A DNA stretch of 34,564 bases from positions 1-34,564 of the IMG/VR virus record IMGVR_UViG_3300032245_000174; one strand, written 5' to 3'. This document shows positions 14,379 through 20,871 of this stretch, piece after piece. How positions within the stretch are numbered: position 1 is the first letter of the stretch; each line of letters starts with the position of its first letter. The translations under genes and the position numbers were made by a program. The notes beneath the pieces are model-generated. The model was not told the origin of the DNA. It saw only the letters and a program-made list of their open reading frames with translations, and did no database searches. The DNA comes from a virus.

Positions 14379-14527
14379 ATTTCGCGTTTAACAGCGGTAT
14401 TCAATGCGTTAATGAATGCGTCCAGGGTTTGATCTGCTTCTTTGGAATATTGCTTGCCGTCTTTATACTGGCTTGCTGATTCCTTTTGTTGCCATGTAGA
14501 TGGCTTTACTGATCCGTCCTGCGGCAT
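14375..14527 (-). CDS. Small overlapping gene between Zeta-like kinase and TerS (50 aa)
   Basis: A 50-residue frame starts inside the 3' end of the Zeta-like gene (65-base overlap, different frame) and ends on the TerS start codon (ATGA). It reads MPQDGSVKPSTWQQKESASQ, then a charged helical segment (KEADQTLDAFINALNTAVKREI). The helix with regular hydrophobic spacing, the stop-start coupling and the fact that it fills the only gap between these genes support it as real. Ribosome site is weak (ACGAGA). Function unknown; a partner or antitoxin for the Zeta-like protein is one guess, a terminase accessory another. Confidence 0.55.
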   Translation of the reverse strand: MPQDGSVKPSTWQQKESASQYKDGKQYSKEADQTLDAFINALNTAVKREI

Positions 14528-15326
14528 ATTCTCGTTCAAGGGCATTTTCTAACTCCTTCTTTACTTTAACTGAATCTATAGTTGGCAATTGACTAATCTT
14601 TATTGCTTTGGCTTTGCCCTTACCGCGAGAGTTATCCACAGCGCGAATTTGGACTTTACCGTTATCTTTAAACTCTTTATCTAACTGCTTGATCGTTTCT
14701 AATGCACCAACGTGAGTTTTTAGAAATTCTGTCAGCGGCACTGTGCGACCAGTTCCTAGTTCCTTTTCCATCCTAGATGCTCGTTGCAATGCACCATTTA
14801 CAAACGCATCAACCGGATCACGATAAGTATAAAGAACTGTTGCCTTTTTATTAGCCTTTAATGCTTCCTGTATTTTTTCCCTGGATGATTCCAGCTTTGC
14901 CATGTTTGTGTCGTAAACCACACCGGCATTCTGAATAGCTGGATGATCCTTCATTGCTTCCAGTGCCGTTGATTTACCTGCTCCTGCACCACCAGCGGTA
15001 AACAAAATATCACCACCATCGCCCTGGGCTAGTTTCTCAGCAAATAATTGCTTAATAAACTTACTTGCTGGCTCATGTACGTCACTAGCTTTAGTTCGGT
15101 CTGCTCGGTAATCCTCTGACAGTTCCCTGGCTATATCTGTATTTAATACCTTACCGCCTTCTGTGCCTTCCAATGCTGCATATTCTGCAACCATCTGCGG
15201 GTATTGCTGCATCAACCGCTGGTATAGCTTCTGTTCGACCTGATTTACGGTAGCAGATGTAGCCTGGTCAGTTCCAGCTTGCTTCTGTTTAATTCCTGCT
15301 TCGTAAATGGCGTTCAGTTTATTCAT
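14463..15326 (-). CDS. Zeta-toxin-like P-loop kinase
   Basis: 287 aa. Walker A is GGAGAGKST at residues 112-120. Downstream features match the Zeta/PezT fold: VVYDTNM (Asp139), a YTYRDP strand (166-171), Arg-rich QRASRM and GRTVPLTEFLKTH (193-205). Zeta enzymes phosphorylate UDP-sugar precursors of the cell wall, though many phage relatives are untested. The N-terminal ~95 residues are a separate helical region. No Epsilon-type antitoxin is recognisable next to it. It sits in the packaging cassette in a chain of overlapping genes, so it is probably made late. It might aid lysis, block other phages or act in the virion; none is shown. Confidence 0.8.
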   Translation of the reverse strand: MNKLNAIYEAGIKQKQAGTDQATSATVNQVEQKLYQRLMQQYPQMVAEYAALEGTEGGKVLNTDIARELSEDYRADRTKASDVHEPASKFIKQLFAEKLAQGDGGDILFTAGGAGAGKSTALEAMKDHPAIQNAGVVYDTNMAKLESSREKIQEALKANKKATVLYTYRDPVDAFVNGALQRASRMEKELGTGRTVPLTEFLKTHVGALETIKQLDKEFKDNGKVQIRAVDNSRGKGKAKAIKISQLPTIDSVKVKKELENALEREYAAGRISKAIYMATKGISKPV

Positions 15327-15616: not shown

Positions 15617-15922
15617 TTAATTCTCCTCAATATAACAAACGTCTTGCCAAGACATGACTAAAAATCGCTCTCCATCTTCAAAATATTCAAAATACTTTAA
15701 ATATTCCTCTGACTTTGAGTTGCCCATTGTGCCAAATCTGATTCGTTCTCCACCTGTTAGCGGATTAGGTACAAATCTGTTTTTTTCGTCAAACTTACCT
15801 TTACCAGCTGCGATAACAGTTCCCATATTATCGGCTTCATCCATTATTACATCAATAATATTGCTTTTTACCCTAGTTTCTGGCTTGACAATAATTTTGT
15901 CGAACATTGGAGTTAATCTCAT
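15617..15922 (-). CDS. GroES-like co-chaperonin
   Basis: 101 aa, the normal GroES length. The beta-barrel landmarks are in order: MFDKIIVKP near the N-terminus (residues 6-14), GTVIAAGKGK (34-43), VPNPLTGGERIRFG (51-64) and ERFLVMSWQDVCYI (85-98). GroES caps the GroEL chamber, and T4 gp31 is a phage version that lets GroEL fold the coat. Here the mobile-loop region (15-33) lacks the usual GGIVLP and reads NIIDVIMDEAD, so its contact with host GroEL may differ. The gene lies among small genes ahead of packaging and coat genes. No GroEL is encoded. Family assignment is from motifs alone. Confidence 0.78.
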   Translation of the reverse strand: MRLTPMFDKIIVKPETRVKSNIIDVIMDEADNMGTVIAAGKGKFDEKNRFVPNPLTGGERIRFGTMGNSKSEEYLKYFEYFEDGERFLVMSWQDVCYIEEN

Positions 15923-20077: not shown

Positions 20078-20106
20078 ATATTAATCTAGGTTAATATCTA
20101 TGTCAA
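20078..20106 (-). promoter_or_regulatory. Early-left promoter with TTAA-type operator
   Basis: Minus strand: TTGACA (20106-20101), 17-base spacer, TAATAT (20083-20078). The near-palindrome TTAACCTAGATTAA (20094-20081) covers the end of the spacer and the -10. A repressor bound there would block RNA polymerase. The promoter faces the 56-aa gene and the whole leftward series. It is closely related to the promoter at 22577-22605 (same -35, same first spacer bases TAGA). Confidence 0.88.
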
Positions 20107-20408
20107 ACGATTTATCCAAATTATTTAATTTATTTTTCTATTGAATTTGTTTAGACGATAGGGCAAGCCAATTAGGTGGTACTCACCCAATTCAGCCATT
20201 TGGAATCTTTATTCTTTCCAAACTACTGCACCTATAAGGACTATGTTTTATTTCCAGAGGGACGATTTTGGATCGCCTAGCCACCACACCACCTGTTTTC
20301 CTCTGTTCCTGTGATACCCATAGTAAGTTCACGCGCTGGCTTGCCAGTAAGCGCATCGGTTTTCTTGGTGGCAGCCCCAACATTGGCTCTCTGCTATCGT
20401 GACCAGTA
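20107..20408 (-). other. Gene-free region rich in inverted repeats
   Basis: No credible gene is present here; the short frames lack ribosome sites and cross the repeats. On the minus strand I see CTGGC-AA-GCCAG (plus 20336-20347, flanked by GCG/CGC), GCCACCA pairing with TGGTGGC over about 95 bases, TTTGGAA / TTCCAAA (10-base loop, about 20200-20222), GGCGAT / ATCGTC, and AATT.GGTG-5-CACC.AATT at about 20169-20192. It may be a second structured RNA, an extension of the RNA at 20409-20531, or the replication origin. The stretch nearest the promoter (20107-20160) is simply AT-rich. Confidence 0.45.
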
Positions 20409-20531
20409 CGGTCTAAACGCAAAAAAGCCCTTTAGTCTTGGCTCTTGCGTGTGTCGGGCACGGCTTCCTTTTTACAGGAAAGAGCCAAAGCTAAAAGGCT
20501 TTGATTTGTCTGATGCCCGACACATAGACCG
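20409..20531 (-). ncRNA. Candidate novel pseudoknotted non-coding RNA
   Basis: Read on the minus strand from about 20529. An outer 7-bp helix CGGTCTA / TAGACCG (20531-20525 with 20415-20409) can enclose the rest. Helix 1 is a perfect 11-bp pairing, TGTGTCGGGCA / TGCCCGACACA (20524-20514 with 20460-20450). Helix 2 pairs 20502-20480 with 20446-20424: 23 positions with two mismatches and one G-U. The 5' strand of helix 2 lies in the loop of helix 1 and its 3' strand lies outside, so the fold is a pseudoknot. A small hairpin (TTCCT / AGGAA) is nested inside. Helix 2 is followed by a T-run (GGGCTTTTTTGCG), so transcription may end near 20419, giving ~110 nt. A TTAA-operator promoter ends just upstream. 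No coding frame fits. Confidence 0.7.
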
Positions 20532-20535
20532 GCAC

Positions 20536-20564
20536 AGACTAACATAGGTAAATTTAAACTTCAA
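20536..20564 (-). promoter_or_regulatory. Promoter of the candidate ncRNA, with operator
   Basis: Minus strand: TTGAAG (20564-20559), 17-base spacer, TAGTCT (20541-20536). The stretch TTTACCTATGTTAGTCTGTG matches the promoter at 22.58 kb (TTAACCTACGTTAATCTATG) at 16 of 20 positions, including the operator. The predicted start, six or seven bases past the -10, falls on 20529 or 20530, inside the 5' strand of the outer helix of the RNA. Nothing coding follows for more than 490 bases. Confidence 0.65.
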
Positions 20565-20631: not shown

Positions 20632-20871
20632 TCAGGTAGTTTTCCTAAGTTCAGGCCATACTATAAACCAGTCGGCTGGAAATAGTTTTTTCCTACTTAA
20701 CTTTCCTGCCGTTTTTTCTTCCAACATTGCAGCTAAATACATTAGCTTATCTTGCGGTATTCCACGCTTACGCCAAACACATACAGCTGGTGGACTGATA
20801 CTTAATATATCAGCCACAGCTTTAGTGCCACCTAATAAATCAATAATTTGGTCATCTGTCATAGTTTGCAT
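20632..20871 (-). CDS. YdaS/Cro-like repressor
   Basis: 79 aa at most. GGTKAVADILSISPPAVCVWRKRGIPQDK (in pieces, residues ~14-42) is the helix-turn-helix of the YdaS/Cro group, with the typical W+++GIP turn, and a MYLAAMLEE helix follows. These proteins act as phage repressors or Cro. The gene lies between divergent promoters whose -10 regions hold TTAA-type operators, so it very likely controls them and itself. The -10 of its promoter ends one base before ATG 20871, so transcription should begin near 20865 and translation more likely starts at Met4 (20862), leaving an almost leaderless mRNA. No CI-type cleavable repressor is present. Confidence 0.85.
   Translation of the reverse strand: MQTMTDDQIIDLLGGTKAVADILSISPPAVCVWRKRGIPQDKLMYLAAMLEEKTAGKLSRKKLFPADWFIVWPELRKTT

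What the first reader, a model, noticed from the sequence alone, without database searches (positions are those of the whole stretch)
20409..20564. Undescribed phage ncRNA: nested pseudoknot with its own repressor-controlled promoter
Seen: on the minus strand a perfect 11-bp helix and a 23-position helix interlock, a 7-bp helix can close the whole, and a T-run follows the second helix. A promoter with TTGAAG-17-TAGTCT and a TTAA-type operator ends just before it, so the predicted start lands inside the outer 5' helix strand. No protein gene follows for more than 490 bases. Inference: an RNA of about 110 nt, made early, under the same repressor as the early operons. It could be a regulatory RNA, a decoy, or an RNA acting on replication or defence. 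Gene-free DNA of this size in a packed phage genome is itself unusual.
Basis: partly seen in the sequence, partly recalled or inferred. Interest (0 to 1): 0.86.

Follow-up and report, generated by a model that had tools for sequence, protein, structure and literature searches.

The report
New phage early-operon leader RNA family
The gene-free stretch encodes a real, previously uncatalogued RNA, found in dozens of environmental phages, that folds by joining two complementary hairpin loops right after its own promoter and ends in a transcription-stop-like signal; it probably acts as a built-in valve for what lies downstream.

Summary
On the minus strand, 20529 to about 20421 encodes a ~107-nt RNA ("A"). 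Forty-five distinct homologues (A1) from diverse uncultivated phages keep the fold while the sequence changes. Hairpin H1 begins at +1, a 22-position helix P2 runs into a U-run, and the 5-7 nt loops of H1 and H2 are perfectly complementary in 45/45, with double changes at all seven pairs. The best promoter ends exactly 6 nt before H1 in 45/45. A subfamily of different sequence (A2, 50 aligned) keeps the layout, adds a second pseudoknot, and sits 9-16 nt before the start codon of early/replication genes (62 of 62 classified). Both keep a central mismatch in P2. No Rfam family matches.

Corrections: the interlocking helix is best read as kissing loops; the closing 7-bp helix is not conserved (4/45); repressor control is not general. 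The rest of the "empty" DNA (20150-20413) encodes a second pseudoknotted RNA ("C"), just downstream of nearly every A1, with no promoter between.

Best reading: a promoter-proximal, terminator-ended leader (attenuator-like valve). The RNA is near-certain; the valve mechanism is about 0.5, inferred and untested.

The parts
20536..20564 (-). sigma70-type promoter TTGAAG-17-TAGTCT; -10 ends 6 nt before the RNA start
   Evidence: best promoter ends exactly 6 nt before H1 in 45/45 homologues, spacer 17 in 44/45; prediction, no RNA data
20421..20529 (-). RNA A (subfamily A1), predicted +1 at 20529, U-run at the 3' end
   Evidence: 45 homologues, pair counts, covariance model
20508..20529 (-). H1 hairpin at +1 (GTCTATG-TGTCGGG-CATCAGAC); loop 20516-20522
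20448..20462 (-). H2 hairpin CGTG-CCCGACA-CACG; loop 20452-20458 pairs with the H1 loop (kissing pseudoknot)
   Evidence: complementary in 45/45; all 7 loop-loop pairs show changes on both sides
20480..20501 (-). P2 5' strand (22 nt); also folds on itself as local hairpin H0, mutually exclusive with P2
   Evidence: P2 95.5% paired, 11 of 22 pairs with double changes; H0 in 45/45
20425..20446 (-). P2 3' strand, with a mismatch conserved near the middle of P2
   Evidence: not a standard pair in 39/45 A1 and 49/50 A2
20463..20479 (-). P3, variable hairpin in the three-way junction
20421..20426 (-). U-run directly after P2, intrinsic-terminator-like
   Evidence: at least 5 U in 45/45; termination itself not tested
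20150..20413 (-). RNA C, second structured element (pseudoknot 20324-20319 with 20245-20240)
   Evidence: C1 pseudoknot 99.1% paired with 5/6 pairs doubly changed; follows A1 in nearly all loci
20078..20106 (-). promoter TTGACA-17-TAATAT and inverted-repeat operator of the next early operon
20632..20871 (-). Cro-like repressor gene upstream of RNA A

Best explanation
RNA A is the 5' leader of a phage early transcription unit. Transcription starts at the first base of hairpin H1. As the RNA emerges, the H1 loop pairs with the H2 loop, and helix P2 (22 positions, with a conserved central mismatch) closes next to a U-run, which should release many transcripts as a stable ~107-nt RNA and let the rest read through into what follows: RNA C in the window, or the first replication gene in the A2 subfamily. 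In A1 the 5' strand of P2 can instead form hairpin H0, which would weaken the terminator and favour read-through, so A would be an attenuator-like valve set by folding or by a bound factor. Supported by sequence comparison here: fold, promoter position, strand, linkage to C or to early genes. Inferred: transcription itself, termination at the U-run, read-through, the switch, and any controlling factor.
For: Kissing loops complementary in 45/45 with 7/7 pairs doubly changed; P2 11/22; 0 of 500 shuffles match, and sliding the partners destroys pairing. Promoter position locked to H1 in 45/45 and to the H1 stem within 5-6 nt in 55/64 A2. U-run of at least 5 in 45/45. A2 has the same layout with different sequence, 97.4% of cells paired, a second covarying pseudoknot, and a start codon 9-16 nt after the U-run in 62/62 classified loci, encoding primosomal, DnaD-like, replication and ParB-like proteins or short unknown ones. 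No promoter between the A1 U-run and C. H0 in 45/45 A1.
Against: No RNA data: start, termination and read-through are predictions. H0 is not evident in all A2 members and P2 is predicted far more stable than H0, so a switch is not proven (the fixed-column count for H0 shows no covariation). In A1 what follows is RNA C, not a gene. No conserved unpaired bases that would mark a ligand or protein site. A U-run after a helix does not prove termination. Many homologues were found with patterns that fix part of P2, so invariance there is partly by construction.
Confidence: 0.5

Rival explanations
1. RNA A is a stable trans-acting small RNA: made from its own promoter, ended by P2 and the U-run, it binds a host or phage protein (decoy or scaffold), and its nearness to C or early genes is incidental.
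For: Strong promoter, hairpin at the very 5' end and terminator-like 3' end; fold kept while sequence drifts.
Against: A2 always sits 9-16 nt before a start codon in the loci classified and A1 nearly always before C with no promoter between, as expected for a cis leader. No conserved single-stranded stretch for target pairing.
Confidence: 0.25
2. P2 is mainly an RNase III-type processing site that cuts the leader from the downstream RNA; the U-run is secondary.
For: Helix of about two turns with a conserved central mismatch in both subfamilies, recalling phage early-mRNA processing signals (own knowledge).
Against: A U-run directly after P2 is conserved, which processing does not need.
Confidence: 0.1
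4. The repeats act as DNA (origin hairpin, cruciform or recombination site), not as RNA.
For: Inverted repeats lie near replication genes.
Against: Abundant G-U pairs on one strand only, promoter lock at +1, U-run, and pseudoknot covariation all point to RNA.
Confidence: 0.03

Closest known systems
Intrinsic-terminator attenuator leaders of bacteria and phages (general class, own knowledge)
   Same: promoter-proximal leader, helix plus U-run, alternative hairpin using the 5' half of the terminator, gene directly downstream (A2)
   Different: no leader peptide or known ligand site seen; the leader is built around kissing loops; termination untested
Phage HK022 put RNA (antitermination leaders; own knowledge)
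   Same: structured RNA at the 5' end of early transcripts; L042, L054 and L090 carry both an A1 and an A2
   Different: put is a pair of simple hairpins that makes polymerase ignore terminators; A itself ends in a terminator-like U-run
phi29 packaging RNA (pRNA)
   Same: ~110-120 nt phage RNA with a three-way junction and two mutually complementary loops that vary between phages (own knowledge)
   Different: different gene context, P2 plus U-run ending, no evidence of pairing between molecules
GOLLD and ROOL phage RNAs
   Same: uncharacterised phage RNAs with pseudoknots and kissing loops (PMC12286853)
   Different: several hundred nt, often near tRNA islands; no Rfam match here
HDV-like ribozymes
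   Same: interlocked double-pseudoknot topology as first described
   Different: no Rfam match; kissing hairpins instead of P1/P1.1; no P4; 5' end apparently set by a promoter

Membership tests
Any Rfam 15 family | covariance-model match at gathering score | tested here: not met
   no gathering match in the window; no match at E<=5 around the locus; homologues give only sub-threshold miRNA-like or leader-like chance matches
Attenuator leader | transcription start fixed at the leader's 5' structure | tested here: met
   by promoter prediction only
Attenuator leader | terminator helix followed by a U-run | tested here: met
   P2 plus at least 5 U in 45/45; sequence feature, not activity
Attenuator leader | mutually exclusive antiterminator | tested here: inconclusive
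   H0 in 45/45 A1, but no covariation in the fixed-column count and not clear in A2
Attenuator leader | regulated gene directly downstream | tested here: inconclusive
   A2: met, 62/62 classified with a start codon 9-16 nt after the U-run; A1: RNA C instead
Attenuator leader | condition-dependent termination and read-through | not testable with these tools
   needs transcription assays
phi29 pRNA | two mutually complementary loops | tested here: met
   45/45 in A1
phi29 pRNA | loops pair between molecules | not testable with these tools
   needs native gel or SEC
phi29 pRNA | phi29-type packaging context | tested here: not met
   P22-like portal and coat, Terminase_3; A lies between cro and the early operon
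Type III toxin-antitoxin RNA | tandem pseudoknot repeats before a toxin gene | tested here: not met
   no direct-repeat array; neighbours are cro and early genes
GOLLD / ROOL | Rfam model match | tested here: not met
HDV-like ribozyme | Rfam match with P1.1 and P4 | tested here: not met
   no P4 in the alignment

The most novel reading that the evidence does not exclude
A and C form an RNA-only phage cassette in which RNA A assembles through its loops, in cis or between molecules, and works without a protein partner, for example acting directly on RNA polymerase or as a multimeric particle.
Probability: 0.1. Interest if true: 0.9.

Novelty: new variant of a known kind. Interest (0 to 1): 0.76.

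Why it matters
It is an uncatalogued RNA superfamily with unusually clear evolutionary support: two subfamilies of different sequence share promoter position, kissing-type pseudoknot, mismatched helix and terminator-like end, at early or replication regions of uncultivated phages. If the valve reading holds, it adds a structured-RNA layer to phage early gene control, testable in any laboratory strain. RNA C next to it is a second unexplained RNA.

Tried and rejected
Exact 16-mer of the H1 region in viral contigs: six chance hits. Genome-contig scan with the A1 pattern: 20 hits, all read as chance matches, none with the flanking structure. Model R1 in 399 genomes of one order: no match; the tool warns that an empty answer there proves little. 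INPHARED phages by blastn with A1 or C: none; with A2: two weak Manatee Spring records. Group I intron idea for C (P3-P7-P8-like order): dropped, no P4-P6 and no Rfam match. HDV-like and type III antitoxin ideas: rejected, see membership test. Antisense RNA: no conserved unpaired seed. One family search failed on wrong coordinates; proteins were then given as letters.

Full report
What was checked. The window is a 34.6-kb virus record with P22-like portal and coat and a Terminase_3 large subunit. The stretch folds with z -6.2 against dinucleotide shuffles. Rfam has no family for it.

Homologues. A search with the Cro protein gave eleven relatives, and those with enough sequence carry the same element downstream of cro. 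Pattern scans of viral contigs brought many more, from contigs with different gene contexts. After removal of chance hits and duplicates, 45 distinct A1 sequences remained.

Fold. In all 45, hairpin H1 (7 positions, some with a mismatch or bulge) and hairpin H2 (CGTG/CACG in most; AGCG/CGCT in two) carry loops of 5-7 nt that are perfectly complementary (for L031 the script chose an 8-nt register). On a MAFFT alignment not fitted to the structure, the loop-loop helix is 100% paired with double changes at 7/7 pairs, P2 is 95.5% paired with double changes at 11/22, and 0 of 500 shuffles reach the observed values; sliding the partners drops pairing to 26-54%. The exact transcripts fold at mean z -6.1, and adding the loop-loop duplex beats the nested minimum in 44/45 (a rough sum, not a pseudoknot energy model).

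Ends. The best sigma70 match ends exactly 6 nt before H1 in 45/45, with a 17-nt spacer in 44/45; a U-run of at least 5 follows P2 in 45/45; TTAA lies upstream in only 17/45. The sequences are related, so these are not 45 independent events. A1 was found once per record in 19 of 22 records searched, the second match listed for each being the weaker opposite strand of the same place.

A2. A structure-descriptor scan found the same layout with other sequence, including in two complete Manatee Spring genomes. A pattern scan then matched 107 stretches, of which the tool's table printed part; 76 distinct cores were found in the loci held, 74 with H1 and a kissing partner. Fifty were aligned: 97.4% of cells paired, a second pseudoknot between the H1-P2 linker and the P3 loop doubly changed at 4/4 pairs, and the central P2 mismatch in 49/50. 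The -10 ends 5-6 nt before the 5-bp H1 stem in 55/64. A start codon lies 9-16 nt after the U-run in the 62 loci where a Shine-Dalgarno-preceded start was found; selected products match primosomal, DnaD-like, replication and ParB-like families, others are short and unknown. The patterns used fix parts of P2, so invariance there is partly by construction; loops and promoters were not fixed, except that one A1 pattern fixed TACACG at the end of the H2 loop and its 3' stem. Whether A1 and A2 share ancestry or only architecture is not settled.

RNA C. Window 20150-20413 and its relatives form a second structured RNA. In C1 the pseudoknot is 99.1% paired with 5/6 double changes and P8 is 100% paired; in C2 the closing hairpin is 100% with 4/4 double changes, while its pseudoknot is 100% paired but barely varies. 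C follows A1 in nearly all loci with enough sequence, mostly beginning about 10-20 nt after the U-run, with no promoter between. Inserts (small ORFs, another RNA-like module, an HNH-like gene in L094) sit between A and C in some.

Interpretation. Because A2 lies directly before a start codon and A1 directly before C, a cis-acting leader is favoured over a trans RNA. P2 plus U-run looks like an intrinsic terminator, and in A1 the 5' strand of P2 can form H0 instead in 45/45, though a fixed-column count gives H0 no covariation support and shuffled strands of the same composition fold at all in about half of cases. I commit to an attenuator-like valve at about 0.5; a trans sRNA, an RNase III site, intermolecular assembly and a DNA element are the rivals. 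No expression data were available, and the host is unknown.

Noticed in passing
window 20150-20413 (-): Second structured RNA (C) with a covarying pseudoknot, in nearly every A1 locus; function unknown.
   Followed up: partly
L014, L024, L050, between A and C: Insert module B (GGTGGTGAATNCGCAGGCTGATGCG ... CCAGCCACCACC), itself RNA-like; an apparent relative lies upstream of C in L063/L066.
   Followed up: no
L016, L088, L091, L095-L097, L101, L102, between A and C: Small ORF family (about 90-100 aa, QLH..A..YAVF) inserted between A and C; a representative has no Pfam match. A different small ORF sits there in L036, L039 and L058.
   Followed up: partly
L094, directly after RNA A: ORF beginning MDEIWVKIQGWPEYEV, resembling an HNH-type endonuclease by eye, starts right after the U-run; not tested.
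   Followed up: no
window 15617-15922 (-): Cpn10 (GroES-like) gene, E 5e-6.
   Followed up: no
window 14463-15326 (-): Zeta-toxin-like / AAA domain protein, E 2.5e-8.
   Followed up: no
L042, L054, L090: Loci carrying both an A1 and an A2 leader.
   Followed up: partly
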